Origin: Mimachlamys varia
Lineage: Eukaryota; Mollusca; Bivalvia; Pectinida; Pectinidae
NCBI GenBank assembly: GCA_947623455.1
Contig: OX392527.1
Location: forward strand, 7,374,001 to 7,438,000
Direction: 5' to 3'
DNA length: 64,000 nucleotides
Below are positions 1-64,000 of this stretch, piece by piece. Below the pieces are notes generated by a model that did no database searches, was not told where the DNA came from, and saw nothing but the letters and a program-made list of their open reading frames with translations. Numbering within the stretch: the first letter of the stretch is position 1; each line of letters begins with the position of its first letter. The position numbers were made by a program, and so were the translations under genes.

Positions 1-3000
1 TGTCTACCTAGATAACAACCTGGGTGTTTGGTGTTGTACAGGACTCTGGGGGTCCCTGTTAACATACTCTACAATGTCCCTGACTACCTAGATAACAACC
101 TGGGTGTGTGGTGTTGTACAGGAGTCTGGGGGTCCCTGGTTACACACTCTACAATGTCCCTGTCTACCTAGATAACAACCTGGGTGTGTGGTGTTGTACA
201 GGAGTCTGGGGGTCCCTGGTTACGCACTCTACAATGTCCCTGACTACCTAGATAACAACCTGGGTGTGTGGTGTTGTACAGGACTCTGGGGGTCCCTGGT
301 AACACACTCTACAATGTCCCTGTCTACCTAGATAACAACCTGGATGTGCGGTGTTGTACAGGAGTCTGGGGGTCCCTGGTTACATACTCTACAATGACCC
401 TGTCTACCTAGATAACAACCTGGGTGTGTGGTGTTGTACAGGAGTCTGGGGGTCCCTGGTAACATACTCTACAATGTCCCTGACTACCTAGATAACAACC
501 TGGGTGTGTGGTGTTGTACAGGACTCTGGGGGTCCCTGGTAACATACTCTACAATGTCCCTGTCTACCTAGATAACAACCTGGGTGTGTGGTGTTGTACA
601 GGAGTCTGGGGGTCCCTGGTAACATACTCTACAATGTCCCTGTCTACCTAGATAACAACCTGGGTGTGCAGTGTTGTACAGGAGTCTGGGGTCCCTGGTA
701 ACATACTCTACAATGTCCCTGTCTACCTAGATAACAACCTGGGTGTGTGGTGTTGTACAGGAGTCTGGGGGTCCCTGGTAACATACTCTACAATGTCCCT
801 GTCTACCTAGATAACAACCTGGGTGTGCGGTGTTGTACAGGAGTCTGGGGGTCCCTGGTAACATACTCTACAATGTTCCTGACTACCTAGATAACAACCT
901 GGGTGTGTGGTGTTGTACAGGACTCTGGGGGTCCCTGGTAACATACTCTACAATGTCCCTGTCTACCTAAATAACAACCTGGGTGTGTGGTGTTGTACAG
1001 GAGTCTGGGGGTCCCTGGTAACATACTCTACAATGTCCCTGTCTACCTAGATAACAACCTGGGTGTGTGGTGTTGTACAGGAGTCTGGGGTCCCTGGTAA
1101 CATACTCTACAATGTCCCTGTCTACCTAGATAACAACCTGGGTGTGTGGTGTTGTACAGGAGTCTGGGGGTCCCTGGTAACATACTCTACAATGTCCCTG
1201 TCTACCTAGATAACAACCTGGGTGTGTGGTGTTGTACAGGAGTCTGGGGGTCCCTGGTAACATACTCTACAATGTCCCTGTCTACCTAGATAACAACCTG
1301 GGTGTGTGGTGTTGTACAGGAGTCTGGGGGTCCCTGGTAACATACTCTACAATGTCCCTGTCTACCTAGATAACAACCTGGGTGTGTGGTGTTGTACAGG
1401 ACTCTGGGGGTCCCTGGTAACATACTCTACAATGTCCCTGTCTACCTAGATAACAACCTGGGTGTTTGGTGTTGTACAGGAGTCTGGGGTCCCTGGTTAC
1501 ATACTCTACAATGTCCCTGTCTACCTAGATAACAACCTGGGTGTGTGGTGTTGTACAGGACTCTGGAGGTCCCTGGTTACACACTCTACAATGTTCCTGT
1601 CTACCTAGATAACAACCTGGGTGTGTGGTGTTGTACAGGACTCTGGAGGTCCCTGGTTACATACTCTACAATGTCCCTGACTACCTAGATAACAACCTGG
1701 GTGTGTGGTGTTGTACAGGACTCTGGGGGTCCCTGTTAACATACTCTACAATGTCCCTGACTACCTAGATAACAACCTGGGTGTGTGGTGTTGTACAGGA
1801 GTCTGGGGGTCCCTGGTTACACACTCTACAATGTCCCTGTCTACCTAGATAACAACCTGGGTGTGTGGTGTTGTACAGGAGTCTGGGGGTCCCTGGTTAC
1901 ACACTCTACAATGTCCCTGTCTACCTAGATAACAACCTGGGTGTGTGGTGTTGTACAGGAGTCTGGGGGTCCCTGGTTACACACTCTACAATGTCCCTGT
2001 CTACCTAGATAACAACCTGGGTGTGTGGTGTTGTACAGGAGTCTGGGGGTCCCTGGTTACACACTCTACAATGTCCCTGTCTACCTAGATAACAACCTGG
2101 GTGTGTGGTGTTGTACAGGAGTCTGGGGGTCCCTGGTTACACACTCTACAATGTCCCTGTCTACCTAGATAACAACCTGGGTGTGTGGTGTTGTACAGGA
2201 GTCTGGGGGTCCCTGGTTACACACTCTACAATGTCCCTGACTACCTAGATAACAACCTGGGTGTGTGGTGTTGTACAGGAGTTTGGGGGTCCCTGGTAAC
2301 ACACTCTACAATGTCCCTGTCTACCTAGATAACAACCTGGGTGTGTGGTGTTGTACAGGAGTCTGGGGGTCCCTGGTTACACACTCTACAATGTCCCTGT
2401 CTACCTAGATAACAACCTGGGTGTGCGGTGTTGTACAGGAGTCTGGGGGTCCCTGGTAACATACTCTACAATGTCCCTGTCTACCTAGATAACAACCTGG
2501 GTGTGTGGTGTTGTACAGGACTCTGGGGGTCCCTGGTAACACACTCTACAATGTCCCTGTCTACCTAAATAACAACCTGGGTGTGTGGTGTACACTTACA
2601 GGACTCTGGGGGTCCCTGGTAACATACTCTACAATGTCCCTGTCTACCTAGATAACAACCTGGGTGTGCGGTGTTGTACAGGACTCTGGGGGTCACTGGT
2701 AACATACTCTACAATGTCCCTGTCTACCTAGATAACAACCTGGGTGTGTGGTGTTGTAAAGGAGTCTGGGGGTCCCTGGTAACATACTCTACAATGTCCC
2801 TGTCTACCTAGATAACAACCTGGGTGTGTGGTGTTGTACAGGAGTCTGGGGGTCCCTGGTAACATACTCTACAATGTCCCTGTCTACCTAGATAACAACC
2901 TGGGTGTGCGGTGTTGTACAGGAGTCTGGGGGTCCCTGGTAACATACTCTACAATGTCCCTGTCTATCTAGATAACAACCTGGGTGTGTGGTGTTGTACA

Positions 3001-6000
3001 GGACTCTGGGGGTCCCTGGTAACATACTCTACAATGTCCCTGTCTACCTAGATAACAACCTGGGTGTTTGGTGTTGTACAGGACTCTGGGGGTCCCTGTT
3101 AACATACTCTACAATGTCCCTGACTACCTAGATAACAACCTGGGTGTGTGGTGTTGTACAGGAGTCTGGGGGTCCCTGGTTACACACTCTACAATGTCCC
3201 TGTCTACCTAGATAACAACCTGGGTGTGTGGTGTTGTACAGGAGTCTGGGGGTCCCTGGTTACACACTCTACAATGTCCCTGACTACCTAGATAACAACC
3301 TGGGTGTGTGGTGTTGTACAGGACTCTGGGGGTCCCTGGTAACACACTCTACAATGTCCCTGTCTACCTAGATAACAACCTGGATGTGCGGTGTTGTACA
3401 GGAGTCTGGGGGTCCCTGGTTACATACTCTACAATGACCCTGTCTACCTAGATAACAACCTGGGTGTGTGGTGTTGTACCGGAGTCTGGGGGTCCCTGGT
3501 AACATACTCTACAATGTCCCTGACTACCTAGATAACAACCTGGGTGTGTGGTGTTGTACAGGACTCTGGGGGTCCCTGGTAACATACTCTACAATGTCCC
3601 TGTCTACCTAGATAACAACCTGGGTGTGTGGTGTTGTACAGGAGTCTGGGGGTCCCTGGTAACATACTCTACAATGTCCCTGTCTACCTAGATAACAACC
3701 TGGGTGTGCAGTGTTGTACAGGAGTCTGGGGTCCCTGGTAACATACTCTACAATGTCCCTGTCTACCTAGATAACAACCTGGGTGTGTGGTGTTGTACAG
3801 GAGTCTGGGGGTCCCTGGTAACATACTCTACAATGTCCCTGTCTACCTAGATAACAACCTGGGTGTGCGGTGTTGTACAGGAGTCTGGGGGTCCCTGGTA
3901 ACATACTCTACAATGTTCCTGACTACCTAGATAACAACCTGGGTGTGTGGTGTTGTACAGGACTCTGGGGGTCCCTGGTAACATACTCTACAATGTCCCT
4001 GTCTACCTAAATAACAACCTGGGTGTGTGGTGTTGTACAGGAGTCTGGGGGTCCCTGGTAACATACTCTACAATGTCCCTGTCTACCTAGATAACAACCT
4101 GGGTGTGTGGTGTTGTACAGGAGTCTGGGGTCCCTGGTAACATACTCTACAATGTCCCTGTCTACCTAGATAACAACCTGGGTGTGTGGTGTTGTACAGG
4201 AGTCTGGGGGTCCCTGGTAACATACTCTACAATGTCCCTGTCTACCTAGATAACAACCTGGGTGTGTGGTGTTGTACAGGACTCTGGGGGTCCCTGGTAA
4301 CATACTCTACAATGTCCCTGTCTACCTAGATAACAACCTGGGTGTTTGGTGTTGTACAGGAGTCTGGGGTCCCTGGTTACATACTCTACAATGTCCCTGT
4401 CTACCTAGATAACAACCTGGGTGTGTGGTGTTGTACAGGACTCTGGAGGTCCCTGGTTACACACTCTACAATGTTCCTGTCTACCTAGATAACAACCTGG
4501 GTGTGTGGTGTTGTACAGGACTCTGGAGGTCCCTGGTTACATACTCTACAATGTCCCTGACTACCTAGATAACAACCTGGGTGTGTGGTGTTGTACAGGA
4601 CTCTGGGGGTCCCTGTTAACATACTCTACAATGTCCCTGACTACCTAGATAACAACCTGGGTGTGTGGTGTTGTACAGGAGTCTGGGGGTCCCTGGTTAC
4701 ACACTCTACAATGTCCCTGTCTACCTAGATAACAACCTGGGTGTGTGGTGTTGTACAGGAGTCTGGGGGTCCCTGGTTACACACTCTACAATGTCCCTGT
4801 CTACCTAGATAACAACCTGGGTGTGTGGTGTTGTACAGGAGTCTGGGGGTCCCTGGTTACACACTCTACAATGTCCCTGTCTACCTAGATAACAACCTGG
4901 GTGTGTGGTGTTGTACAGGAGTCTGGGGGTCCCTGGTTACACACTCTACAATGTCCCTGTCTACCTAGATAACAACCTGGGTGTGTGGTGTTGTACAGGA
5001 GTCTGGGGGTCCCTGGTTACACACTCTACAATGTCCCTGTCTACCTAGATAACAACCTGGGTGTGTGGTGTTGTACAGGAGTCTGGGGGTCCCTGGTTAC
5101 ACACTCTACAATGTCCCTGACTACCTAGATAACAACCTGGGTGTGTGGTGTTGTACAGGAGTTTGGGGGTCCCTGGTAACACACTCTACAATGTCCCTGT
5201 CTACCTAGATAACAACCTGGGTGTGTGGTGTTGTACAGGAGTCTGGGGGTCCCTGGTTACACACTCTACAATGTCCCTGTCTACCTAGATAACAACCTGG
5301 GTGTGCGGTGTTGTACAGGAGTCTGGGGGTCCCTGGTAACATACTCTACAATGTCCCTGTCTACCTAGATAACAACCTGGGTGTGTGGTGTTGTACAGGA
5401 CTCTGGGGGTCCCTGGTAACACACTCTACAATGTCCCTGTCTACCTAAATAACAACCTGGGTGTGTGGTGTACACTTACAGGACTCTGGGGGTCCCTGGT
5501 AACATACTCTACAATGTCCCTGTCTACCTAGATAACAACCTGGGTGTGCGGTGTTGTACAGGACTCTGGGGGTCACTGGTAACATACTCTACAATGTCCC
5601 TGTCTACCTAGATAACAACCTGGGTGTGTGGTGTTGTAAAGGAGTCTGGGGGTCCCTGGTAACATACTCTACAATGTCCCTGTCTACCTAGATAACAACC
5701 TGGGTGTGTGGTGTTGTACAGGAGTCTGGGGGTCCCTGGTAACATACTCTACAATGTCCCTGTCTACCTAGATAACAACCTGGGTGTGCGGTGTTGTACA
5801 GGAGTCTGGGGGTCCCTGGTAACATACTCTACAATGTCCCTGTCTATCTAGATAACAACCTGGGTGTGTGGTGTTGTACAGGACTCTGGGGGTCCCTGGT
5901 AACATACTCTACAATGTCCCTGTCTACCTAGATAACAACCTGGGTGTTTGGTGTTGTACAGGACTCTGGGGGTCCCTGTTAACATACTCTACAATGTCCC

Positions 6001-8880
6001 TGACTACCTAGATAACAACCTGGGTGTGTGGTGTTGTACAGGAGTCTGGGGGTCCCTGGTTACACACTCTACAATGTCCCTGTCTACCTAGATAACAACC
6101 TGGGTGTGTGGTGTTGTACAGGAGTCTGGGGGTCCCTGGTTACACACTCTACAATGTCCCTGACTACCTAGATAACAACCTGGGTGTGTGGTGTTGTACA
6201 GGACTCTGGGGGTCCCTGGTAACACACTCTACAATGTCCCTGTCTACCTAGATAACAACCTGGATGTGCGGTGTTGTACAGGAGTCTGGGGGTCCCTGGT
6301 TACATACTCTACAATGACCCTGTCTACCTAGATAACAACCTGGGTGTGTGGTGTTGTACCGGAGTCTGGGGGTCCCTGGTAACATACTCTACAATGTCCC
6401 TGACTACCTAGATAACAACCTGGGTGTGTGGTGTTGTACAGGACTCTGGGGGTCCCTGGTAACATACTCTACAATGTCCCTGTCTACCTAGATAACAACC
6501 TGGGTGTGTGGTGTTGTACAGGAGTCTGGGGGTCCCTGGTAACATACTCTACAATGTCCCTGTCTACCTAGATAACAACCTGGGTGTGCAGTGTTGTACA
6601 GGAGTCTGGGGTCCCTGGTAACATACTCTACAATGTCCCTGTCTACCTAGATAACAACCTGGGTGTGTGGTGTTGTACAGGAGTCTGGGGGTCCCTGGTA
6701 ACATACTCTACAATGTCCCTGTCTACCTAGATAACAACCTGGGTGTGCGGTGTTGTACAGGAGTCTGGGGGTCCCTGGTAACATACTCTACAATGTTCCT
6801 GACTACCTAGATAACAACCTGGGTGTGTGGTGTTGTACAGGACTCTGGGGGTCCCTGGTAACATACTCTACAATGTCCCTGTCTACCTAAATAACAACCT
6901 GGGTGTGTGGTGTTGTACAGGAGTCTGGGGGTCCCTGGTAACATACTCTACAATGTCCCTGTCTACCTAGATAACAACCTGGGTGTGTGGTGTTGTACAG
7001 GAGTCTGGGGTCCCTGGTAACATACTCTACAATGTCCCTGTCTACCTAGATAACAACCTGGGTGTGTGGTGTTGTACAGGAGTCTGGGGGTCCCTGGTAA
7101 CATACTCTACAATGTCCCTGTCTACCTAGATAACAACCTGGGTGTGTGGTGTTGTACAGGAGTCTGGGGGTCCCTGGTAACATACTCTACAATGTCCCTG
7201 TCTACCTAGATAACAACCTGGGTGTGTGGTGTTGTACAGGAGTCTGGGGGTCCCTGGTAACATACTCTACAATGTCCCTGTCTACCTAGATAACAACCTG
7301 GGTGTGTGGTGTTGTACAGGACTCTGGGGGTCCCTGGTAACATACTCTACAATGTCCCTGTCTACCTAGATAACAACCTGGGTGTTTGGTGTTGTACAGG
7401 AGTCTGGGGTCCCTGGTTACATACTCTACAATGTCCCTGTCTACCTAGATAACAACCTGGGTGTGTGGTGTTGTACAGGACTCTGGAGGTCCCTGGTTAC
7501 ACACTCTACAATGTTCCTGTCTACCTAGATAACAACCTGGGTGTGTGGTGTTGTACAGGACTCTGGAGGTCCCTGGTTACATACTCTACAATGTCCCTGA
7601 CTACCTAGATAACAACCTGGGTGTGTGGTGTTGTACAGGACTCTGGGGGTCCCTGTTAACATACTCTACAATGTCCCTGACTACCTAGATAACAACCTGG
7701 GTGTGTGGTGTTGTACAGGAGTCTGGGGGTCCCTGGTTACACACTCTACAATGTCCCTGTCTACCTAGATAACAACCTGGGTGTGTGGTGTTGTACAGGA
7801 GTCTGGGGGTCCCTGGTTACACACTCTACAATGTCCCTGTCTACCTAGATAACAACCTGGGTGTGTGGTGTTGTACAGGAGTCTGGGGGTCCCTGGTTAC
7901 ACACTCTACAATGTCCCTGTCTACCTAGATAACAACCTGGGTGTGTGGTGTTGTACAGGAGTCTGGGGGTCCCTGGTTACACACTCTACAATGTCCCTGT
8001 CTACCTAGATAACAACCTGGGTGTGTGGTGTTGTACAGGAGTCTGGGGGTCCCTGGTTACACACTCTACAATGTCCCTGTCTACCTAGATAACAACCTGG
8101 GTGTGTGGTGTTGTACAGGAGTCTGGGGGTCCCTGGTTACACACTCTACAATGTCCCTGACTACCTAGATAACAACCTGGGTGTGTGGTGTTGTACAGGA
8201 GTTTGGGGGTCCCTGGTAACACACTCTACAATGTCCCTGTCTACCTAGATAACAACCTGGGTGTGTGGTGTTGTACAGGAGTCTGGGGGTCCCTGGTTAC
8301 ACACTCTACAATGTCCCTGTCTACCTAGATAACAACCTGGGTGTGCGGTGTTGTACAGGAGTCTGGGGGTCCCTGGTAACATACTCTACAATGTCCCTGT
8401 CTACCTAGATAACAACCTGGGTGTGTGGTGTTGTACAGGACTCTGGGGGTCCCTGGTAACACACTCTACAATGTCCCTGTCTACCTAAATAACAACCTGG
8501 GTGTGTGGTGTACACTTACAGGACTCTGGGGGTCCCTGGTAACATACTCTACAATGTCCCTGTCTACCTAGATAACAACCTGGGTGTGCGGTGTTGTACA
8601 GGACTCTGGGGGTCACTGGTAACATACTCTACAATGTCCCTGTCTACCTAGATAACAACCTGGGTGTGTGGTGTTGTAAAGGAGTCTGGGGGTCCCTGGT
8701 AACATACTCTACAATGTCCCTGTCTACCTAGATAACAACCTGGGTGTGTGGTGTTGTACAGGAGTCTGGGGGTCCCTGGTAACATACTCTACAATGTCCC
8801 TGTCTACCTAGATAACAACCTGGGTGTGCGGTGTTGTACAGGAGTCTGGGGGTCCCTGGTAACATACTCTACAATGTCCC
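1..8880. repeat. Higher-order repeat: three copies of ~2.9-3.0 kb
   Basis: The same ordered series of variant 80-bp monomers recurs at 1-3040 (38 units), 3041-5920 (36 units) and 5921-8880 (37 units). Anchors: a GGGTGTTTGG unit with GGACTCTGG and CCCTGTTAAC opens each copy (1, 3041, 5921). A TGGATGTGCGG unit lies at about 341, 3381 and 6261. The TACACTTAC variant lies at 2591, 5471 and 8511. Copy 2 lacks two monomers in the run near 4200. Copies 2 and 3 share a GTTGTACCGGAG variant (3480, 6360) that copy 1 lacks, so they are the closer pair. A more rearranged fourth copy with the TGGATGTGCGG marker starts near 12.4 kb. Confidence 0.85.
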
Positions 8881-11800
8881 TGTCTACCTAGATAACAACC
8901 TAGGTGTTTGGTGTTGTACAGGAGTCTGGGGGTCCCTGGTAACATACTCTACAATGTCCCTGTCTACCTAGATAACAACCTGGGTGTGCGGTGTTGTACA
9001 GGAGTCTTGGGGTCCCTGGTAACATACTCTACAATGTCCCTGTCTACCTAGATAACAACCTGGGTGTGTGGTGTTGTACAGGAGTCTGGGGGTCCCTGGT
9101 TACACACTCTACAATGTCCCTGTCTACCTAGATAACAACCTGGGTGTGTGGTGTTGTACAGGAGTCTGGGGGTCCCTGGTTACACACTCTACAATGTCCC
9201 TGTCTACCTAGATAACAACCTGGGTGTGTGGTGTTGTACAGGAGTCTGGGGGTCCCTGGTTACACACTCTACAATGTCCCTGTCTACCTAGATAACAACC
9301 TGGGTGTGTGGTGTTGTACAGGAGTCTGGGGGTCCCTGGTTACACACTCTACAATGTCCCTGTCTACCTAGATAACAACCTGGGTGTGTGGTGTTGTACA
9401 GGAGTCTGGGGGTCCCTGGTTACACACTCTACAATGTCCCTGACTACCTAGATAACAACCTGGGTGTGTGGTGTTGTACAGGAGTTTGGGGGTCCCTGGT
9501 AACACACTCTACAATGTCCCTGTCTACCTAGATAACAACCTGGGTGTGTGGTGTTGTACAGGAGTCTGGGGGTCCCTGGTTACACACTCTACAATGTCCC
9601 TGTCTACCTAGATAACAACCTGGGTGTGCGGTGTTGTACAGGAGTCTGGGGGTCCCTGGTAACATACTCTACAATGTCCCTGTCTACCTAGATAACAACC
9701 TGGGTGTGTGGTGTTGTACAGGACTCTGGGGGTCCCTGGTAACACACTCTACAATGTCCCTGTCTACCTAAATAACAACCTGGGTGTGTGGTGTACACTT
9801 ACAGGACTCTGGGGGTCCCTGGTAACATACTCTACAATGTCCCTGTCTACCTAGATAACAACCTGGGTGTGCGGTGTTGTACAGGACTCTGGGGGTCACT
9901 GGTAACATACTCTACAATGTCCCTGTCTACCTAGATAACAACCTGGGTGTGTGGTGTTGTAAAGGAGTCTGGGGGTCCCTGGTAACATACTCTACAATGT
10001 CCCTGTCTACCTAGATAACAACCTGGGTGTGTGGTGTTGTACAGGAGTCTGGGGGTCCCTGGTAACATACTCTACAATGTCCCTGTCTACCTAGATAACA
10101 ACCTGGGTGTGCGGTGTTGTACAGGAGTCTGGGGGTCCCTGGTAACATACTCTACAATGTCCCTGTCTACCTAGATAACAACCTAGGTGTTTGGTGTTGT
10201 ACAGGAGTCTGGGGGTCCCTGGTAACATACTCTACAATGTCCCTGTCTACCTAGATAACAACCTGGGTGTGCGGTGTTGTACAGGAGTCTTGGGGTCCCT
10301 GGTAACATACTCTACAATGTCCCTGTCTACCTAGATAACAACCTGGGTGTTTGGTGTTGTACAGGAGTCTGGGGTCCCTGGTTACATACTCTACAATGTC
10401 CCTGTCTACCTAGATAACAACCTGGGTGTGTGGTGTTGTACAGGACTCTGGGGGTCCCTGTTAACATACTCTACAATGTCCCTGACTACCTAGATAACAA
10501 CCTGGGTGTGTGGTGTTGTACAGGAGTCTGGGGGTCCCTGGTTACACACTCTACAATGTCCCTGTCTACCTAGATAACAACCTGGGTGTGTGGTGTTGTA
10601 CAGGAGTCTGGGGGTCCCTGGTTACACACTCTACAATGTCCCTGTCTACCTAGATAACAACCTGGGTGTGTGGTGTTGTACAGGAGTCTGGGGGTCCCTG
10701 GTTACACACTCTACAATGTCCCTGTCTACCTAGATAACAACCTGGGTGTGTGGTGTTGTACAGGAGTCTGGGGGTCCCTGGTTACACACTCTACAATGTC
10801 CCTGTCTACCTAGATAACAACCTGGGTGTGTGGTGTTGTACAGGAGTCTGGGGGTCCCTGGTTACACACTCTACAATGTCCCTGTCTACCTAGATAACAA
10901 CCTGGGTGTGTGGTGTTGTACAGGAGTCTGGGGACCCTGGTTACACACTCTACAATGTCCCTGTCTACCTAGATAACAACCTGGGTGTGTGGTGTTGTAC
11001 AGGAGTCTGGGGGTCCCTGGTTACACACTCTACAATGTCCCTGACTACCTAGATAACAACCTGGGTGTGTGGTGTTGTACAGGAGTTTGGGGGTCCCTGG
11101 TAACACACTCTACAATGTCCCTGTCTACCTAGATAACAACCTGGGTGTGTGGTGTTGTACAGGAGTCTGGGGGTCCCTGGTTACACACTCTACAATGTCC
11201 CTGTCTACCTAGATAACAACCTGGGTGTGTGGTGTTGTACAGGAGTCTGGGGGTCCCTGGTAACATACTCTACAATGTCCCTGTCTACCTAGATAACAAC
11301 CTGGGTGTGCGGTGTTGTACAGGAGTCTGGGGGTCCCTGGTAACATACTCTACAATGTCCCTGTCTACCTAGATAACAACCTGGGTGTGTGGTGTTGTAC
11401 AGGACTCTGGGGGTCCCTGGTAACACACTCTACAATGTCCCTGTCTACCTAAATAACAACCTGGGTGTGTGGTGTACACTTACAGGACTCTGGGGGTCCC
11501 TGGTAACATACTCTACAATGTCCCTGTCTACCTAGATAACAACCTGGGTGTGCGGTGTTGTACAGGACTCTGGGGGTCACTGGTAACATACTCTACAATG
11601 TCCCTGTCTACCTAGATAACAACCTGGGTGTGTGGTGTTGTAAAGGAGTCTGGGGGTCCCTGGTAACATACTCTACAATGTCCCTGTCTACCTAGATAAC
11701 AACCTGGGTGTGTGGTGTTGTACAGGAGTCTGGGGGTCCCTGGTAACATACTCTACAATGTCCCTGTCTACCTAGATAACAACCTGGGTGTGCGGTGTTG

Positions 11801-43002: not shown

Positions 43003-43031
43003 TTGTTGTACAGGACTCTGGGGGTCCCTGG
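43003..43031. repeat. 29-bp partial-monomer insertion, second copy
   Basis: Same joint as the fragment at 39287, offset 3716 bp, carried along by the higher-order duplication. The flanking first copy differs by one base (GTGTTGTACAGG here, GTGATGTACAGG at 39258). Confidence 0.8.
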
Positions 43032-52000: not shown

Positions 52001-53976
52001 CCCTGGTAACATACTCTACAATGTCCCTGTCTACCTAGATAACAACCTGGGTGTGTGGTGTTGTACAGGAGTCTGGGGGTCCCTGGTAACATACTCTACA
52101 ATGTCCCTGTCTACCTAGATAACAACCTGGGTGTGTGGTGTTGTACAGGACTCTGGGGTCCCTGGTAACATACTCTACAATGTCCCTGACTACCTAGATA
52201 ACAACCTGGGTGTGTGGTGTTGTACAGGAGTCTGGGGTCCCTGGTAACATACTCTACAATGTCCCTGACTACCTAGATAACATCCTGGGTGTGTGGTGTT
52301 GTACAGGAGTCTGGGGTCCCTGGTAACACACTCTACAATGTCCCTGTCTACCTAGATAACAACCTGGGTGTGTGGTGTTGTACAGGACTCTGGGGGTCCC
52401 TGGTAACATACTCTACAATGTCCCTGACTACCTAGATAACAACCTGGGTGTGTGGGGTTGTACAGGAGTCTGGGGGTCCCTGGTAACATACTCTACAATG
52501 TCCCTGTCTACCTAGATAACAACCTGGGTGTGTGGTGTTGTACAGGAGTCTGGGGGTCCCTGGTAACATACTCTACAATGTCCCTGTCTACCTAGATAAC
52601 AACCTGGGTGTGTGGTGTTGTACAGGAGTCTGGGGGTCCCTGGTTACACACTCTACAATGTCCCTGTCTACCTAGATAACAACCTGGGTATGTGGTGTTG
52701 TACAGGACTCTGGGGGTCCCTGGTAACACACTCTACAATGTCCCTGTCTACCTAGATAACAACCTAGGTGTTTGGTGTTGTACAGGAGTCTGGGGGTCCC
52801 TGGTAACATACTCTACAATGTCCCTGACTACCTGGATAACAACCTGGGTATGTGGTGTTGTACAGGACTCTGGGGGTCCCTGGTAACACACTCTACAATG
52901 TCCCTGTCTACCTAGATAACAACCTAGGTGTTTGGTGTTGTACAGGAGTCTGGGGGTCCCTGGTAACATACTCTACAATGTCCCTGACTACCTAGATAAC
53001 AACCTGGGTGTGTGGTGTTGTACAGGAGTCTGGGGGTCCCTGGTAACATACTCTACAATGTCCCTGTCTACCTAGATAACAACCTGGGTGTGTGGTGTTG
53101 TACAGGAGTCTGGAGTCCCTGGTAACATACTCTACAATGTCCCTGTCTACCTAGATAACAACCTGGGTGTGTGGTGTTGTACAGGAGTCTGGGGGTCCCT
53201 GGTAACATACTCTGCAATGTCCCTGTCTACCTAGATAACAACCTGGGTGTGTGGTGTTGTACAGGACTCTGGGGGTCCCTGGTAACATACTCTACAATGT
53301 CCCTGTCTACCTAGATAACAACCTGGGTGGTTGGTGTTGTACAGGAGTCTGGGGGTCCCTGGTAACATACTCTACAATGTCCCTGTCTACCTAGATAACA
53401 ACCTAGGTGTTTGGTGTTGTACAGGAGTCTGGGGTCCCTGGTTACACACTCTACAATGTCCCTGACTACCTAGATAACAACCTGGGTGTGTGGTGTTGTA
53501 CAGGAGTCTGGGGGTCCCTGGTAACATACTCTACAATGTCCCTGTCTACCTAGATAACAACCTGGGTGTGTGGTGTTGTACAGGAGTCTGGGGGTCCCTG
53601 GTAACATACTCTACAATGTTCCTGACTACCTAGATAACAACCTGGGTATGTGGTGTTGTACAGGAGTCTGGGGGTCCCTGGTAACATACTCTACAATGTC
53701 CCTGTCTACTTAGATAACAACCTGGGTGTGTGGTGTTGTACAGGAGTCTGGGGGTCCCTGGTTACACACTCTACAATGTCCCTGTCTACCTAGATAACAA
53801 CCTGGGTGTGTGGTGTTGTACAGGAGTCTGGGGGTCCCTGGTAACACACTCTACAATGTCCCTGTCTACCTAGATAACAACCTGGGTGTGTGGTGTTGTA
53901 CAGGAGTCTGGAGGTCCCTGGTAACACACTCTACAATGTCCCGGTCTACCTAGATAACAACCTGGGTGTGTGGTGT

Positions 53977-53984
53977 ACACTTAC
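53977..53984 (-). other. Authentic 5' splice site after exon 54059-53985
   Basis: On minus, AGTCCT is followed by GTAAGTGTACACC, a strong donor. It is the exon-proximal first unit from which the 83/80-bp satellite derives. Confidence 0.85.
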
Positions 53985-54059
53985 AGGACTCTGGAGGTCC
54001 CTTGTTACATACTCTACAATGTTCCTGGCTACCTCAGCATATTTTTCCTCTTTGGTTAT
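53985..54059 (-). CDS. SPATA20: SPATA20 exon: start of toroid domain, AEVARNIVEYVTRDL
   Basis: 75 nt, 25 codons, phase 0 at both ends. It follows TTTTATTTACAG and precedes GTAAGT. The translation reads ITKEEKYAEVARNIVEYV and then TRDLQSP, matching the helix that in this family runs between the FEKMLYDQ...YSEAYQ segment and the GGFYSAEDADS motif. The next exon should therefore begin near that motif, beyond the left edge. The last 50 nt are the template of the 80-bp satellite. The exon itself differs from the satellite consensus (GTAACAAGGGACCTCCAGAGT versus GTTACCAGGGACCCCCAGACT within the coding part), which separates the genuine exon from its copies. Expected soluble protein; no signal or membrane segment is visible. 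Confidence 0.87.
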
Positions 54060-54100: not shown

Positions 54101-54190
54101 AGGCCTCACTGTAACCATAGATACCTGATAAGTCTCAATGTAACCATAGATACCTGACAGGTCTCACTATAACCATAGATACTTGATAGG

Positions 54191-56891
54191 TCTCATTGTA
54201 ACCATAGATACTTGGTAGGTTTCACTGTAACCATAGATACCTGGTAGGTTTCACTGTAATAGATACCTGACAGGTCACACTGTAACCATAGAAACCTGAC
54301 AGGTCTCATTGTAACCATAGATACCTGGTAGGTTTCAATGTAACCATAGATACCTGGTAGGTTTCACTTTAACCATAGATACCTGGTAGGTTTCACTGTA
54401 ATAGATACCTGATAGGTTTCACTGTTACCATAGGTACCTGGTAGGTTTCACTGTAATAGATACCTGGTAGGTTTCACTGTAATAGATACCTGGTAGGTTT
54501 CACTTTAACCATAGATACCTGACAGGTCTCACTGTAACCATAGATACCTGGTAGGTTTCACTGTAACCATAGATACCTGGTAGGTTTCACTGTAATAGAT
54601 ACCTGACAGGTCGCACTGTAACCATAGATACCTGACAGGTCTCACTGTAACCATAGATACCTGGTAGGTTTCACTGTAACCTTAGATACCTGGTAGGTTT
54701 CACTTTAACCATAGATACCTGGTAGGTTTCATTGTAACCATAGATACCTGGTAGGTTTCACTGTAATAGATACCTGACAGGTCGCACTGTAACCATAGAT
54801 ACCTGACAGGTTTCACTGTAACCATAGATACCTGGTAGGTTTCACTGTAACCATAGATACCTGGTAGGTTTCACTTTAACCATAGATACCTGATAGGTCT
54901 AACTGTAACTATAGATACCTGATAGGCCTCACTGTAACTATAGATACCTAACAGGTTTCACTGTAACCATAGATACCTGATAGGTTTCACTGTAACCATA
55001 GGTACCTGATAGGTCTAACTGTAACTATAGATACCTGATAGGTCTAACTATAACCATAGATACCTGATAGGTCTAACTGTAACTATAGATACCTGATAGG
55101 TCTCATTGTAACCATAGATACTTGGTAGGTTTCACTGTAACCATAGATACCTGGTAGGTTTCACTGTAATAGATACCTGACAGGTCACACTGTAACCATA
55201 GAAACCTGACAGGTCTCATTGTAACCATAGATACCTGGTAGGTTTCAATGTAACCATAGATACCTGGTAGGTTTCACTTTAACCATAGATACCTGGTAGG
55301 TTTCACTGTAATAGATACCTGATAGGTTTCACTGTTACCATAGGTACCTGGTAGGTTTCACTGTAATAGATACCTGGTAGGTTTCGCTGTAATAGATACC
55401 TGGTAGGTTTCACTTTAACCATAGATACCTGACAGGTCTCACTGTAACCATAGATACCTGGTAGGTTTCACTGTAACCATAGATACCTGGTAGGTTTCAC
55501 TGTAATAGATACCTGACAGGTCGCACTGTAACCATAGATACCTGACAGGTCTCACTGTAACCATAGATACCTGGTAGGTTTCACTGTAACCTTAGATACC
55601 TGGTAGGTTTCACTTTAACCATAGATACCTGGTAGGTTTCATTGTAACCATAGATACCTGGTAGGTTTCACTGTAATAGATACCTGACAGGTCGCACTGT
55701 AACCATAGATACCTGACAGGTTTCACTGTAACCATAGATACCTGGTAGGTTTCACTGTAACCATAGATACCTGGTAGGTTTCACTTTAACCATAGATACC
55801 TGATAGGTCTAACTGTAACTATAGATACCTGATAGGCCTCACTGTAACTATAGATACCTAACAGGTTTCACTGTAACCATAGATACCTGATAGGTTTCAC
55901 TGTAACCATAGGTACCTGATAGGTCTAACTGTAACTATAGATACCTGATAGGTCTAACTATAACCATAGATACCTGATAGGTCTAACTGTAACTATAGAT
56001 ACCTGATAGGTCTCATTGTAACCATAGATACTTGGTAGGTTTCACTGTAACCATAGATACCTGGTAGGTTTCACTGTAATAGATACCTGACAGGTCACAC
56101 TGTAACCATAGAAACCTGACAGGTCTCATTGTAACCATAGATACCTGGTAGGTTTCACTTTAACCATAGATACCTGGTAGGTTTCACTGTAATAGATACC
56201 TGATAGGTTTCACTGTTACCATAGGTACCTGGTAGGTTTCACTGTAATAGATACCTGGTAGGTTTCACTGTAATAGATACCTGGTAGGTTTCACTTTAAC
56301 CATAGATACCTGACAGGTCTCACTGTAACCATAGATACCTGGTAGGTTTCACTGTAACCATAGATACCTGGTAGGTTTCACTGTAATAGATACCTGACAG
56401 GTCGCACTGTAACCATAGATACCTGACAGGTCTCACTGTAACCATAGATACCTGGTAGGTTTCACTGTAACCTTAGATACCTGGTAGGTTTCACTTTAAC
56501 CATAGATACCTGGTAGGTTTCATTGTAACCATAGATACCTGGTAGGTTTCACTGTAATAGATACCTGACAGGTCGCACTGTAACCATAGATACCTGACAG
56601 GTTTCACTGTAACCATAGATACCTGGTAGGTTTCACTGTAACCATAGATACCTGGTAGGTTTCACTTTAACCATAGATACCTGATAGGTCTAACTGTAAC
56701 TATAGATACCTGATAGGCCTCACTGTAACTATAGATACCTAACAGGTTTCACTGTAACCATAGATACCTGATAGGTTTCACTGTAACCATAGGTACCTGA
56801 TAGGTCTAACTGTAACTATAGATACCTGATAGGTCTAACTATAACCATAGATACCTGATAGGTCTAACTGTAACTATAGATACCTGATAGG
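54191..56891. repeat. 910-bp higher-order repeat in the 29-bp array, three copies
   Basis: The same ordered set of variants, including 26-bp units, a GAAACCTGAC unit and a GGTCGCACTG unit, starts at 54191, 55101 and 56011 with lengths 910, 910 and 881 bp. Copy 3 lacks exactly one 29-bp unit (the TTTCAATGTAACC one). Copy 2 has a private CGCTG near 55385. Confidence 0.88.
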
Positions 56892-57130
56892 TCTCACTGT
56901 AACCATAGATACCTGGTATTGCCTCACTGTAACCATAGATTCCTGGTAGGTTTCACTGTAAACATAGATACCTGATAGGCCTCACTGTAACCATAGATAC
57001 CTGACAGGTTTCACTGTAACCATAGATACCTGATAGGTTTCACTGTAAACATCGATACCTGATAGGCCTCACTGTAACCATAGATACCTGACAGGTTTCA
57101 CTGTAACCATAGATACCTGACAGGTCTCAC

Positions 57131-58465
57131 TGTAAACATAGATACCTGATAGGCCTCACTGTAACCATATATACCTGACAGGTTTCACTTTAACCATAAA
57201 TACCTGATAGGTCTCACTGTAACCATAGATACCTGACAGGTTTCACAGTAACCATAAATACCTGATACATGTAGGTCTCACTGTAACCATAGATACCTGA
57301 CAGGTTTCACTGTAACCATAAATACCTGATAGGTCTCACTGTTACCATAGATACCTGACAGGTCTCACTGTAACCATAGATACCTGACAGGTTTCACTGT
57401 AACCATAGACACATGACAGTCCTCACTGTAACCATAGATACCTGATAGGTCTCATTGTAACCATAGATACCTGATAGGTTTCACTGTAAACATAGATACC
57501 TGATAGGCCTCACTGTAACCATATATACCTGATAGATCTCACTGTAACCATAGATACCTGGTAGGTTTCACTATAACCATAGATACCTGATAGGTTTCAC
57601 TGTAACCATAGATACCTGACAGGTTTCACTATAACCATAGATACCTGGTAGGTTTCACTATAACTATAGATACCTGCTAGGCCTCACTGTAACCATAGAT
57701 ACCTGATAGATCTCACTGTAACCATAGATACCTGGTAGGTTTCACAGTAACCATAGATTCCTGGTAGGTTTCACTGTAAACATAGATACCTGATAGGCCT
57801 CACTGTAACCATATATACCTGACAGGTTTCACTTTAACCATAAATACCTGATAGGTCTCACTGTAACCATAGATACCTGACAGGTTTCACAGTAACCATA
57901 AATACCTGATAGGTCTCACTGTAACCATAGATACCTGACAGGTTTCACTGTAACCATAAATACCTGATAGGTCTCACTGTAACCATAGATACCTGACAGG
58001 TCTCACTGTAACCATAGATACCTGACAGGTTTCACTGTAACCATAGACACATGACAGTCCTCACTGTAACCATAGATACCTGATAGGTCTCATTGTAACC
58101 ATAGATACCTGATAGGTTTCACTGTAAACATAGATACCTGATAGGCCTCACTGTAACCATATATACCTGATAGATCTCACTGTAACCATAGATACCTGGT
58201 AGGTTTCACTATAACCATAGATACCTGATAGGTTTCACTGTAACCATAGATACCTGACAGGTTTCACTATAACCATAGATACCTGGTAGGTTTCACTATA
58301 ACTATAGATACCTGCTAGGCCTCACTGTAACCATAGATACCTGATAGATCTCACTGTAACCATAGATACCTGGTAGGTTTCACAGTAACCATAGATTCCT
58401 GGTAGGTTTCACTGTAAACATAGATACCTGATAGGCCTCACTGTAACCATATATACCTGACAGGT
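57131..58465. repeat. 638/644-bp duplicated block in the 29-bp array
   Basis: A 22-unit block recurs in tandem. Anchors are ATATATACCTGACAGG (57167, 57811) and AGACACATGACAGTCC (57407, 58045). The offset is 644 bp before and 638 bp (22 x 29) after a 6-bp CATGTA insertion near 57268 that only copy 1 carries. Confidence 0.82.
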
Positions 58466-61117
58466 TTCACTGTAACCATAGATACCTGCTAGGCCTCACT
58501 GTAACCATAGATACCTGACAGGTTTCACTGTAAACATAGATACCTGATAGATCTCACTGTAACCATAGATACCTGGTAGGTTTCACTGTAACCATAGATT
58601 CCTGGTAGGTTTCACTGTAAACATAGATACCTGATAGGCCTCACTGTAACCATAGATACCTGACAGGTTTCACTGTAACCATAGATACCTGATAGGCCTC
58701 ACTGTAACCATAAATACCTGATAGGCCTCACTGTTACCATTAATACCTGACAGGTTTCACTGTAAACATAGATACCTGGTAGGTTTCACTATAACCATAG
58801 ATACCTGACAGATTTCACTGTCAACATAGATACCTGATAGGTTTCACTGTAAACATAGTTACCTGATAGGCCTCACTGTAACCATAGATACCTGATAGGT
58901 CTCACTGTAACCATAGATACCTGATAGGTTTCACTGTAAACATAGATACCTGATAGGCCTCACTGTAACCATATATACCTGACAGGTTTCACTGTAACCA
59001 TAAATACCTGATAGGTCTCACTGTAACCATAGATACCTGACAGGTTTCACTGTAACCATAGATACCTGACAGGTTTCACTGTAACCATAAATACCTGATA
59101 GGTCTCACTGTAACCATAGATACCTGACAGGTTTCACTGTAACTATAGATACCTGACAGGTCTCACTGTAACCATAGATACCTGACAGGTTTCACTGTAA
59201 CCATAGACACCTGACAGTCCTCACTGTAACCATAGATACCTGATAGGTCTCATTGTAACCATAGATACCTGATAGGTCTTTTTGTAACCATAGATACCTG
59301 ACAAGTCTCACTGTAACCATAGATACCTGATAGGCCTCACTGTAACCATAGATACCTGATAGGTCTCATTGTAACCATAGATACCTGATAGGTCTTTTTG
59401 TAACCATAGATACCTGACAAGTCTCACTGTAACCATAGATACCTGATAGGCCTCACTATAACTATAGATACCTGATAGGTCTCACTGTAACTATAGATAC
59501 CTGATAGGTCTCACTGTAACCATAGATACCTGATAGATCTCACTGTAACCATAGATACCTGGTAGGTTTCACTGTAACCATAAATACCTGGTAGGTATCA
59601 CTGTAACCATAGATACCTGACAGGTTTCACTGTAATAGATACCTGACAGGTCTCCCTGTAACCATAAATACCTGACAGGTTTCACTGTAAACATAGATAC
59701 CTGACAGGTTTCACTGTAACCATAGATACCTGACAAGTTTCACTGTAACTATAGGTACCTGACAGGTCTCACTGTAACCATAGATACCTGACAGGTTTCA
59801 CTGTAACCATAGACACCTGATAGGTCTCACTGTAACCATAGATACCTGACAGATTTCACTGTAAACATAGATACCTGATAGATTTCACTGTAAACATAGT
59901 TACCTGATAGGCCTCACTGTAACCATAGATACCTGATAGGTCTCACTGTAACCATAGATACCTGATAGGTTTCACTGTAAACATAGATACCTGATAGGCC
60001 TCACTGTAACCATATATACCTGATAGGTCTCACTGTAACCATAGATACCTGACAGGTTTCACTGTAACCATAAATACCTGATAGGTCTCACTGTAACCAT
60101 AGATACCTGACAGGTTTCACTGTAACTATAGATACCTGACAGGTCTCACTGTAACCATAGATACCTGACAGGTTTCACTGTAACCATAGACACCTGACAG
60201 TCCTCACTGTAACCATAGATACCTGATAGATCTCATTGTAACCATAGATACCTGATAGGTCTTTTTGAAACCATAGATACCTGCCAAGTCTCACTGTAAC
60301 CATAGATACCTGATGGGCCTCACTGTAACCATAGGTACCTGATAGGCTTCACTATAACTATAGATACCTGATAGGTCTCACTGTAACTATAGATACCTGA
60401 TAGGTCTCACTGTAACAATAGATACCTGATAGATCTCACTGTAACCATAGTTACCTGGTAGGTTTCACTATTACCATAAATACCTGGTAGGTTTCACTGT
60501 AATAGATACCTGACAGGTTTCACTGTAATAGATACCTGACAGGTCTCCCTGTAACCATAAATACCTGACAGGTTTCACTGTAAACATAGATACCTGACAG
60601 GTCTCACTGTAACTATAGGTACCTGACAGGTCTCACTGTAACCATAGATACCTGACAGGTTTCACTGTAACCATAGATACCTGACAAGTTTCACTGTAAC
60701 TATAGGTACCTGACAGGTTTCACTGTAACCATAGACACCTGATAGGTCTCACTGTAACAATAGATACCTTATAGGTCTCATTGTAACCATAAATACCTGA
60801 TAGGTCTTTTTGTAACCATAGATACCTGATAGGTCTCACTGTAACCATAGATACCTGACAGGTCTCACTGTAACTATAGGTACCTGACAGGTCTCACTGT
60901 AACCATAGATACCTGATAGGCCTCACTGTAACCATAAATACCTGATAGGCCTCACTGTAACCATAGATACCTGACAGGTCTCACTGTAACCATAGATACC
61001 TGATAGACGTCACTGTTACTATAGATATACCTGATAGGTCTCAATGTAATCATAGATACCTGATAGGTCTCATTGTAACCATAGATACCTAATAGGCCTC
61101 ACTGTAACCATAGATAC
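58466..61117. repeat. Exon-proximal, more diverse part of the 29-bp array
   Basis: The 29-bp units continue with more varied substitutions (GGTCTTTTTGTAACC, AGACACCTGACAGTCC, CTCCCTGTAACC). Partial higher-order similarity remains, for example between about 58.97-59.3 kb and 60.0-60.3 kb. The units nearest the exon read AGGCCTCACTGTAACC like the exon itself (GAGGCCT), as expected at the source end. No gene in this part. Confidence 0.75.
61110..61117 (-). other. 5' splice site after exon 61222-61118
   Basis: On minus TATCAG is followed by GTATCTATGG. The same decamer recurs in most of the 29-bp units downstream, so choice of the first copy cannot rest on the decamer alone. Confidence 0.7.
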
Positions 61118-61222
61118 CTGATAGGCCTCACTGTAGCAGTTGAGCAGCTGACCCTGGTCATACAACATCTTTTCAAAGTGAGGCACATGCCAGAACTTGT
61201 CCGTGGAGTATCTGTGGAATCC
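61118..61222 (-). CDS. SPATA20: SPATA20 exon: GFHRYS...[12 protein letters not shown] motif
   Basis: 105 nt, 35 codons, phase 0 at both ends. It follows GTTCTGGATGTTACAG and precedes GTATCT. The translation contains [18 protein letters not shown] and then [29 protein letters not shown] is the most recognisable signature of the SPATA20/YyaL (DUF255) family, and the GFHRYS element directly continues the GGIYDHVSQ end of the preceding exon. Residues of this conserved loop face the central cavity of the toroid in related folds; a catalytic role is not established. The last 18 nt (YSEAYQ) seed the 29-bp array. The other minus-strand frame through this exon is open but not homologous to anything I recognise. 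Confidence 0.9.
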
Positions 61223-61404
61223 CTGTAACATCCAGAACAACACAACAAGTGAAATCCATGTTTCTTCATCTTGTCACGAATCACCATTGTTATTTATGAT
61301 TGTAACCTACTTATGTTCTGAGGATAAAAAAAGCCTTTCTTGAATCGATCAATTTTTTGTACAATTTTGAAAAAGAAAATATTGTATGGAATAGAAGACA
61401 GGCA
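61223..61404 (-). other. Unique intron sequence with splice acceptor
   Basis: It separates the 51-bp array from the next exon. On minus it continues GTGCCTGTCTTCTATTCC after the last array donor and ends with a pyrimidine-rich TTGTTGTGTTGTTCTGG then ATGTTACAG. An in-frame stop (AATTGA) lies about 60 nt in, so retention would truncate the protein. No other feature seen. Confidence 0.8.
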
Positions 61405-62475
61405 CACTAACCTGTGACACATGGTCGTAGACGCCGCCCTTGGCCATGCTGGTTACACTAACCTGTGACACATGGTCGTAGACGCCGCCCTTAGCCATGC
61501 TGGTTACACTAACCTGTGACACATGGTCGTAGACGCCGCCCTTAGCCATGCTGGTAACACTAACCTGTGACACATGGTCGTAGACGCCGCCCTTAGCCAT
61601 GCTGGTTACTCTAACCTGTGACACATGGTCGTAGATGCCGCCCTTAGCCATGCTGGTTACACTAACCTGTGACACATGGTCGTAGATGCCACCCTTAGCC
61701 ATGCTGGTTACACTAACCTGTGACACATGGTCGTAGATGCCACCCTTAGCCATGCTGGTTACACTAACCTGTGACACATGGTCGTAGACGCCGCCCTTAG
61801 CCATGCTGGTTACACTAACCTGTGACACATGGTCGTAGATGCCGCCCTTAGCCATGCTGGTTACACTAACCTGTGACACATGGTCGTAGATGCCGCCCTT
61901 AGCCATGCTGGTTACACTAACCTGTGACACATGGTCGTAGATGCCGCCCTTAGCCATGCTGGTTACACTAACCTGTGACACATGGTCGTAGACGCCGCCC
62001 TTAGCCATGCTGGTTACACTGACCTGTGACACATGGTCGTAGACGCCGCCCTTGGCCATGCTGGTTACACTAACCTGTGACACATGGTCGTAGACGCCGC
62101 CCTTGGCCATGCTGGTTACACTAACCTGTGACACATGGTCGTAGACGCCGCCCTTGGCCATGCTGGTAACACTAACCTGTGACACATGGTCGTAGACGCC
62201 GCCCTTAGCCATGCTGGTTACACTAACCTGTGACACATGGTCGTAGACGCCGCCCTTGGCCATGCTGGTTACACTAACCTGTGACACATGGTCGTAGACG
62301 CCGCCCTTAGCCATGCTGGTTACACTAACCTGTGACACATGGTCGTAGACGCCTCCCTTAGCCATGCTGGTTACACTAACCTGTGACACATGGTCGTAGA
62401 CGCCGCCCTTAGCCATGCTGGTTACACTAACCTGTGACACATGGTCGTAGATGCCGCCCTTAGCCATGCTGGTTA
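61405..62475 (-). repeat. 51-bp array, 21 exact-length units, open in the exon's reading frame
   Basis: Each unit is the last 44 nt of the exon (TAACCAGCATGGC to CATGTGTCACAG) plus the first 7 nt of intron (GTTAGTG). There are 21 units, all 51 bp, from the exon copy down to 61405. Because 51 is a multiple of 3, read-through encodes TSMAKGGVYDHVSQVSV repeats without a stop. Unit differences in the exon-derived part are GCT/GCC, GGC/GGT and GGC/GGA (silent) and GTC/ATC (Val/Ile). The intron-derived part varies as GTA/GTT, GTT/GTC and one AGT to AGA. Twenty of 21 donor copies read GTTAGT (one GTTAGA); one near 62020 has GTCAGT. Any of the donors could in principle end the exon, changing the protein by multiples of 17 residues. 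Whether the array is spliced out or translated cannot be decided from sequence. Confidence 0.93.
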
Positions 62476-62562
62476 AGGTGAAAAGGCATTCTTCAAGAGC
62501 TTTCTCACCCTCCTCTGTTGAGGAATTGTTGGCATAGTAACGTAACATGAAGTTCAAATTTA
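62432..62562 (-). CDS. SPATA20: SPATA20 exon: LNFMLRYYAN...SMAKGGIYDHVSQ
   Basis: 131 nt if the first donor is used, entered in phase 1 (codon G|TA) after TCTATATTTACAG and left in phase 0. The translation reads (V)NLNFMLRYYANNSSTEE, then GEKALEECLFTLTSMAKG and GIYDHVSQ. This matches the family segment just after the APKFP-like stretch and just before GFHRYS, ending in the conserved GGIYD(H/Q)V. The upstream ATG that opens the frame at 62587 is intronic and not a start. If later donors are used the exon extends to as far as 61412 and adds up to 340 residues (20 x 17) between GGIYDHVSQ and GFHRYS, which would be an unusual insertion in a conserved loop. Confidence 0.87.
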
Positions 62563-62582
62563 CTGTAAATATAGACAGAACA
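62563..62582 (-). other. Splice acceptor before exon 62562-62432
   Basis: On minus, GTTCTGTCTATATTTACAG precedes TAAATTTGAAC. The site restores a Val codon whose first base, G, must come from the exon beyond 64000. Confidence 0.75.
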
Positions 62583-62817
62583 TCCATAAGTATTTTTCAA
62601 AAGTATATAATTTGCTTATTAAATAACACAGCAAGCTGAAGCAAATAATTCACCTAGATTTTAATATTAATACAATAGTTGTGGATAGTTAACTGGTATG
62701 TAACCTGTATGTATCAAACTTTAATTATCACTATGAATAGCAACCATGTATACATAAAAGTGATAAATCACCACAAAAACATGTACAAAGTACACAACAT
62801 GCTCGTCAGGCCTGTGC
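62583..62817. other. Unique AT-rich intron sequence
   Basis: About 235 bp without repeats or coding potential that I can support, between the acceptor and the 34-bp array. Confidence 0.7.
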
Positions 62818-64000
62818 ACCCCCTGCCCCTCCTACAATGTATTTATACACCACCCATTGACCCTCCTACACTGTATTTATACACCACCCACTGCCCCTCC
62901 TACACTGTAGTCATACACTCACTGCCCCTCCTACACCGTAGTCATAAATCCACTGCCCCTCCTACACCTGAATTTATACACCATCCACTGCCCCTCCTAC
63001 ACTGTATTTATACACCACCCACTGCCCCTCCTACACTGTAGTCATACATCCACTGCCCCTCCTACACTGTATTTATACACCACCCACTGCCCTTCCTACA
63101 CTGTATTTATACACCACCCACTGCCCCTCCTACACTGTATTTATACACCACCCACTGCCCCTCCTACACTGTATTTATACACCACCCACTGCCCCTCCTA
63201 CACTGTATTTATACACCACCCACTGCCCCTCCTACACTGTATTTATACACCACCCACTGCTCTTCCTACACTGTATTTATACACCACCCACTGCCCCTCC
63301 TACACTGTATTTATACACCACCCACTGCCCCTCCTACACTGAATTTATACATCACCCACTGCCCCTCCTACACTGTATTTATACATCACCGACTGCCCCT
63401 CCTACACTGTAGTCATACACCCACTGCCCCTCCTACACTGTATTTATACACCACCCACTGCTCTTCCTACACTGTATTTATACACCACCCACTGCTCTTC
63501 CTACACTGTATTTATACACCACCCACTGCCCCTCCTACACTGTATTTATACACCACCCACTGCCCTTCCCATACTGTAGTCATACACCCACTCTCCCTCC
63601 TACACTGTATTTATACACCACCCACTGCCCCTCCTACACTGTATTTATACACCACCCACTGCCCCTTCTACACTGTATTTATACACCACCCACTGCCCCT
63701 CCTACACTGTATTTATACACCACCCACTGCCCCTCCTACACTGTATTTATACACCACCCACTGCCCCTCCTACACTGTATTTATACACCACCCACTGCTC
63801 CTCCTACATTGTAGTCATACACCCACTTCCCCTCCTACACTGTAGTCATACACCCACTGCTCCTCCTACACTGTATTTATACACCACCCACTGCTCTTCC
63901 TACACTGTATTTATACACCACCCACTGCCCCTCCTACACTGTATTTATACACCACCCGCTGCTCCTCCTACACTGTAGTCATACACCCACTGCCCCTCCT
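62818..64000. repeat. 34/31-bp tandem array running off the right edge
   Basis: About 35 units: a 34-bp form (plus: CTGCCCCTCCTACACTGTAT then TTATACACCACCCA) and a 31-bp form with GTAGTCATACACCCA in the second half, intermixed. It lies in the intron upstream of the exon at 62562. On minus each 34-bp unit reads GGTGTATAAATACAGTGTAG, which includes TATAAATA. A plus-strand frame is open through a few units (for example 62679-63041) but has no homology I recognise. By analogy with the other arrays the source may be the exon beyond 64000, but the unit does not resemble the expected APKFP-type exon end. Confidence 0.88.

What the first reader, a model, noticed from the sequence alone, without database searches (positions are those of the whole stretch)
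1..64000. Three consecutive 5' splice sites of one gene have each seeded their own tandem array
The 51-, 29- and 80/83-bp units are unrelated to one another, yet each is exactly the last part of its adjacent exon plus the first part of the following intron (44+7, 18+11, 50+33 nt). Each array begins at the authentic donor and extends downstream into the intron. Three independent origins at the same kind of position point to a mechanism focused on exon-intron junctions (for example R-loop or transcription-linked replication slippage near U1 sites), not random minisatellite birth. A related phenomenon ('mirages') is, from memory, described in amphioxus; three in series, with one above 54 kb, is what looks new here.
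Basis: partly seen in the sequence, partly recalled or inferred. Interest (0 to 1): 0.95.

Follow-up and report, generated by a model that had tools for sequence, protein, structure and literature searches.

The report
Splice-site-seeded repeat arrays in scallop
In the SPATA20 gene of a scallop, five exon ends together with their splice sites have been copied in tandem into the introns that follow, one array reaching 55 kilobases, and sampled exons of two other gene families show the same at about one donor in eight, so 5' splice sites are likely birthplaces of repeat DNA that splicing would then have to ignore.

Summary
On the minus strand, exons E5, E6 and E7 of a SPATA20 orthologue each end in a donor whose flanks (44+7, 18+11, 50+33 nt) are the unit of the array that follows. 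The host is not amphioxus but the scallop Mimachlamys varia. Fetching the flanks shows 5 of 12 donors of this gene with such arrays, 1 of 12 acceptors, and one array over the stop codon; the E7 array is 55.4 kb (690 units, 37 with an intact donor). These match the 'mirages' described in amphioxus, here in a mollusc. In an exon panel (myosin, kinesin) junction-spanning arrays occur at 10 of 81 donors (about 3.5 expected) and 7 of 87 acceptors (about 3.8 expected). Genome-wide, three spaced copies of CAGGTAAGT occur 7,433 times against 188 for the reversed word, 7-fold per single site; an acceptor word gives 2.0-fold, not normalised. A donor preference is thus supported for arrays of three or more copies, but acceptors and a stop codon are copied too, and three in series is not exceptional here. 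Whether birth, growth or survival causes the bias, and which donor copy is spliced, is untested: no RNA was available.

The parts
62432..62562 (-).
61404..62475 (-). array 1: 21 copies of 51 bp (44 nt exon end + 7 nt intron start, exon copy included); open in the exon's frame through all copies; 19 of 21 copies keep CACAGGTTAGT
61118..61222 (-). SPATA20 exon E6 (105 nt)
54101..61135 (-). array 2: about 244 copies of 29 bp (18 nt exon end + 11 nt intron start); 182 of 244 donor contexts found read CAGGTATCT
53985..54059 (-). SPATA20 exon E7 (75 nt)
1..54034 (-). array 3: 80/83-bp units (50 nt exon end + 33 nt intron start); continues outside the window to -1355 (about 55.4 kb, 690 units, 37 with GTAAGTGTACACC, 619 with TGTACAACACC)
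62817..64000 (-). array 4: 34-bp units inside the E4-E5 intron, continuing to 68552 outside the window; does not contain the E4 donor

Best explanation
These arrays are 'mirage' minisatellites: tandem copies of an exon's last 18-50 bases plus the first 7-33 bases of its intron, likely born by a short tandem duplication across the 5' splice site and predicted to be harmless because splicing would use the exon-proximal donor and remove every extra copy with the intron. Shown: the anatomy, the scallop host, five donor arrays in this gene, an excess of donor-spanning arrays in a two-family panel, and a genome-wide excess of tandem donor words. Inferred: duplications arise around junctions of both kinds, but those over donors grow into arrays more often than duplications elsewhere in introns. 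I commit to a donor-biased birth or early growth, filtered by splicing tolerance: a copied donor lies downstream of the real one and adds nothing to the exon, whereas a copied acceptor lies upstream of the real one and could be chosen first. The physical cause of the donor bias, and the use of the first donor in Mimachlamys varia, are untested.
For: Unit boundaries; gene and junctions from orthologous proteins with a single copy of each segment; 12 introns examined in this gene: donors E2, E5, E6, E7 and E10 carry arrays, of acceptors only E9; host identity by three contig lengths equal to the published longest, N50 and N90 scaffold lengths; panel of 92 exons: 10 of 81 called donors and 7 of 87 called acceptors spanned, background 64 and 66 of 1,500 comparable windows, strict arrays 8 of 81 donors and 3 of 87 acceptors against 2.4-2.6 and 2.6-2.8; genome: CAGGTAAGT triples 7,433 against 188 reversed, singles 30,635 against 5,463, i.e. 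7.05-fold per single; acceptor-word triples 2,388 against 1,194. GC accounts for 1.14-fold at donors and 1.02-fold at acceptors.
Against: A coverage profile shows no peak at donors (11 of 81 at the junction, 8-12 of 81 at points 10-110 bp into the intron), though it counts each spanning array again downstream. Unit consensus sequences of 83 arrays in 284 kb are not richer in donor motifs (3 against 2 reversed and 2.6 shuffled at score 5). The donor-acceptor difference in the panel is not significant (Fisher P 0.45). The exon copy is held by selection, which lengthens the time a spanning array stays detectable. Junctions were corrected by hand in five exons (L043, L052, L060 donors; L088, L091 acceptors) after repeats had been flagged there; with all 92 exons as denominator P is 0.006-0.007 for donors and 0.10-0.11 for acceptors. 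About 26-28 distinct edges underlie each strict background pool. The genome-wide triples were not checked to lie at exon ends, overlap within arrays, and the acceptor word was not normalised to its singles (requests did not complete). The stop-codon array has no donor.
Confidence: 0.7

Rival explanations
1. Selection filter only: minisatellites are born at the same rate everywhere in this repeat-rich genome, those inside exons are lost, and junction-spanning ones survive because one intact exon copy remains. No focus on donors exists.
For: Acceptor arrays and a stop-codon array exist; coverage at donors equals intron coverage; unit consensus sequences are not donor-rich; arrays make up 52% of 284 kb read, a non-random sample; other scallop genomes are rich in tandem repeats (passages).
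Against: Array edges are 2.8-fold above local background at donors, about 3-fold in the strict count, and donor-word triples are 7-fold above the reversed word per single site.
Confidence: 0.25
2. Transcription-linked birth at donors, for example U1-associated R-loops or fork stalling at exon ends. It is one possible cause within the best explanation.
For: The donor excess is stronger than the acceptor excess among arrays of three or more copies.
Against: Nothing here measures R-loops, replication direction or U1 binding; the stop-codon array and acceptor arrays need another route.
Confidence: 0.25
3. Assembly artefact: copy numbers or whole arrays are produced by misassembly of repeats.
For: Array 3 (55 kb) is longer than a typical HiFi read (recalled), so its exact copy number is uncertain.
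Against: 141 distinct unit sequences among the 673 units in the window with weak local higher-order patterns; short arrays such as the 21-copy 51-mer and the two- to four-copy panel cases fit within single long reads (inference); the published assembly is from HiFi reads with contig N50 19.4 Mb (passages).
Confidence: 0.04
4. Array 1 is a coding repeat: all 21 copies are translated as a 17-residue repeat tract.
For: 51 is a multiple of 3, the frame is open through all copies, and 3 of the 5 variable codons, of 16 examined, vary only synonymously.
Against: The 8 SPATA20 proteins aligned have one copy; the exon part is already coding, so an open frame follows almost from divisibility by 3 alone; arrays 2 and 3 have units of 29 and mostly 80 bp, not divisible by 3.
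Confidence: 0.06

Closest known systems
Amphioxus 'mirages' (Adh3, globin, PGBD5, TnC genes)
   Same: [quoted passage not shown] at donors and acceptors; said not to disturb regular splicing (passages of PMC3087553, and PMC3902484).
   Different: Host is a bivalve mollusc; five donors in one gene; one array of 690 units and 55.4 kb, against 3 and 6 units quoted for globin BflGb6; a donor bias was measured here. The original Adh paper (Canestro 2002) was not held and is known only through its citation.
Intron creation by tandem duplication of AGGT proto-splice sites (Rogers; Gao and Lynch, as cited in the PMC3087553 passage)
   Same: Tandem duplication of exon sequence carrying splice signals.
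   Different: Here existing introns are enlarged; no new intron is shown.
Ordinary intronic minisatellites
   Same: Units of 28-83 bp with shared variants between copies.
   Different: The unit includes coding sequence and the donor of the flanking exon.

Membership tests
mirage (exon-intron boundary minisatellite) | Tandem units that span an exon-intron boundary | tested here: met
mirage (exon-intron boundary minisatellite) | Splice signal present in the copies | tested here: met
   Commonest donor context in 19 of 21 (E5), 182 of 244 (E6), 45 of 56 (E10) and 11 of 31 (E2) copies found; intact donor in only 37 of 690 units of the E7 array
mirage (exon-intron boundary minisatellite) | Authentic junction still used, normal mRNA | not testable with these tools
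   No RNA reads available; single-copy orthologous proteins agree with it
mirage (exon-intron boundary minisatellite) | Length instability between alleles or cells | not testable with these tools
   Only one assembly held
mirage (exon-intron boundary minisatellite) | Occurrence in cephalochordates, the reported lineage (not a structural criterion) | tested here: not met
   Host is Mimachlamys varia: three contig lengths equal the published longest, N50 and N90 scaffolds of xbMimVari1.1; total and number differ slightly (975,302,275 bases in 71 contigs here; 975,381,475 in 82 scaffolds in print)

The most novel reading that the evidence does not exclude
In scallops the 5' splice site itself is a minisatellite seed: perhaps a thousand loci carry arrays of perfect donors, each copy being ignored by splicing because it lies downstream of the real donor, while the arrayed U1 sites keep the swelling intron from premature polyadenylation, so donor arrays are the ones free to grow to tens of kilobases.
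Probability: 0.2. Interest if true: 0.9.

Novelty: new variant of a known kind. Interest (0 to 1): 0.72.

Why it matters
It carries mirages, described for lancelets in the papers I opened, to a mollusc, and shows that they are frequent there: 10 of 81 sampled donors. That turns a curiosity into a natural experiment on splice-site choice: many near-identical donors stand beside the real one, in and out of frame, at known distances. It also offers a testable origin for intron growth and minisatellite birth.

Tried and rejected
Rejected: amphioxus as host (Branchiostoma SPATA20 58% against 86-91% for four scallop-type sequences). Rejected: my first reading that donors are no hotter than introns, based on coverage; counting array edges and using background windows that begin array-free reversed it. 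An earlier background without that condition gave a lower expectation and was replaced. Rejected as main cause: GC content. No donor enrichment in unit consensus sequences of 83 arrays: kept as evidence against. Higher-order structure of array 3: weak lags (74, 36 and 38 units in the distal third), not pursued.

Array lengths at donors and acceptors: 7 of 10 against 2 of 7 reach 200 bp (Fisher P 0.15, Mann-Whitney P 0.07; this set of ten donors has L055 in place of L064): suggestive only.

Literature. Listings were capped in several (15 of 121, 20 of 72, 15 of 17, 10 of 32) and most hits were not opened. The papers opened that describe mirages concern lancelets; (minisatellite, splice donor, intron, mollusc) returned none. 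The library holds open-licence papers only, so absence in print is not shown. An amphioxus huntingtin paper gave nothing of use.

Full report
WHAT IS THERE. The window is G000:C1:7374001-7438000. C1 is 65,822,114 bases long, the longest-scaffold length given for Mimachlamys varia xbMimVari1.1; C9 and C17 match its N50 and N90 scaffold lengths (passages). The held genome has 975,302,275 bases in 71 contigs against 975,381,475 in 82 scaffolds in print, a small difference that I did not resolve. The gene is on the minus strand. Three exons in the window (E5 62562-62432, E6 61222-61118, E7 54059-53985) join into an open frame of 103 aa. Of 7,997 proteins found (120 listed) the best four are scallop-type SPATA20 proteins: Mizuhopecten, an unnamed 790-aa sequence, Ylistrum and Pecten; over the 103 residues they are 86-91% identical, Branchiostoma 58%, and none of the 8 proteins aligned has a second copy of a repeated segment. 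A Pfam scan of the piece gave only a sub-threshold match.

THE THREE ARRAYS. Self-comparison at the unit period starts 44, 18 and 50 nt before the donors of E5, E6 and E7. Array 1 has 21 units, 9 distinct, and its frame is open throughout. Array 2 has about 244 units. Array 3 extends beyond the window to -1355; E8 starts at -1422, so almost the whole 55-kb intron is array: 690 units, 37 with the exon's GTAAGTGTACACC and 619 with TGTACAACACC. Its units are on average 85-88% identical to the exon end in every eighth of the array. In one search the stretch 61100-62820 matched only itself and array 2 of this locus; that search skips very common words.

THE REST OF THE GENE. tblastn with three scallop-type proteins placed 13 coding exons; the first coding exon may not be the true start. 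Donor arrays: E2 (28 bp), E5, E6, E7, E10 (40 bp). Acceptor array: E9 (46 bp, about 4 copies). The last exon carries an array across its stop codon: 78 copies, at up to 4 mismatches, of the 17-bp word around the TGA lie in the 3' region. Two introns have arrays that do not touch a junction (34 bp after E4, 30 bp before E4). So 5 of 12 donors and 1 of 12 acceptors.

IS IT MORE THAN CHANCE, AND IS IT DONORS? Panel: exons found by Pfam families Myosin_head (74 matches) and Kinesin (131 matches), taken without regard to repeats; 68 and 24 were covered by fetched DNA. A donor was called in 81 and an acceptor in 87 of the 92. Anchored echo test: 11 of 81 donors and 7 of 87 acceptors, two donor hits and one acceptor hit being weak; in shuffled sequence 3 of 2,120. 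Cases read by eye: kinesin L084, L088, L089, L091, L096 and myosin L021, L052, L060, L066 at donors; kinesin L078, L087, L088, L091 and myosin L035, L061, L075 at acceptors. Counting arrays by their exon-proximal edge gives 10 donor-spanning and 7 acceptor-spanning arrays. Background windows whose first bases are array-free, as an exon is, give 64 of 1,500 and 66 of 1,500 spanning-like arrays in two pools; expected 3.5-3.6 at donors (P 0.002-0.003) and 3.7-3.8 at acceptors (P 0.08-0.09). Requiring 2.7 periods: 8 of 81 donors against 2.4-2.6 (P 0.003-0.004), 3 of 87 acceptors against 2.6-2.8 (P about 0.5). About 26-28 distinct edges underlie each pool in the strict count, so the expectation itself is uncertain. 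Donors and acceptors do not differ significantly from each other (P 0.45). SPATA20 (5 of 12) exceeds the background (P about 1e-4) but was chosen for having arrays. Against this, coverage shows no donor peak and the units of 83 arrays are not donor-rich.

GENOME-WIDE. CAGGTAAGT three times at spacings of 15-45 occurs 3,348 + 4,085 times, the reversed word 59 + 129. Single sites are 30,635 and 5,463: 0.243 and 0.034 triples per single, 7.05-fold. Matches overlap within arrays, so they are not independent loci. The first 100 triples listed fall in 10 loci over 9.98 Mb, extrapolating to about 980; of the first 38 distinct single-site loci listed, 6 hold three or more copies. These locus counts are rough: the listings are capped, and the triple locus at 3.406 Mb is missing from the list of singles. 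The five loci whose sequence is printed have units that differ in length and sequence. The acceptor word TTTTNCAGG in triple: 2,388 against 1,194 reversed, its first 100 matches in two loci; it was not normalised to single sites. None of these matches was tied to an annotated exon.

HOW IT LIKELY WORKS. Shown: junctions copied in tandem, donors more often than expected. Inferred: a short tandem duplication spanning a donor leaves the first exon copy and donor intact, so the copies are intronic and can grow by unequal exchange; copies over acceptors precede the true acceptor and are likely tolerated only when few. The excess over intron background means that tolerance alone is not enough; a birth or growth bias at donors is needed, its cause unknown. 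The stop-codon array shows that the architecture does not require a splice site.

KNOWN AND NEW. Mirages are described for amphioxus Adh3, globin, PGBD5 and TnC genes (passages), at both donors and acceptors, with unit lengths of 10-160 bp quoted for Adh3 and globins. Intronic partial exons with splice sites are mentioned for amphioxus VCBP3 (passage). Scallop genomes are rich in tandem repeats, 21.7% and 11.3% being given for two species (passages). New here, as far as the searches named under Tried and rejected show: mirages in a mollusc, five donors in one gene, 55 kb, and a measured donor bias.

Noticed in passing
window -8592 to about -11528 (loci L011, L012): SPATA20 last exon: array seeded across the stop codon; 78 copies, at up to 4 mismatches, of the word around the TGA in the 3' region.
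   Followed up: partly
window -2107 to -1916 (L011): Acceptor array at E9: 46-bp unit, about 4 copies, 30 nt of exon included.
   Followed up: yes
window 61404-62475: Array 1 stays open in the exon's frame through all 21 copies; any donor choice there would add multiples of 17 residues.
   Followed up: partly
window -79999 to -75174 (L018), 75054 to 78212 (L010), 94645 to 99217 (L020): Neighbouring arrays whose units hold donor-like words (CCCAGTAAGTATT, CTGATCAGGTAGGAG on minus, TCAGTAAGTAG); their genes were not identified.
   Followed up: no
G000:C10 about 7.99-8.95 Mb: Several kinesin matches of nearly equal score repeat along this stretch, as if the gene were present in several near-identical copies.
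   Followed up: no
window 1-54034: Units with the intact 83-bp donor form are scattered through array 3 at intervals of 3 to 42 units (35 of 673 in the window).
   Followed up: partly
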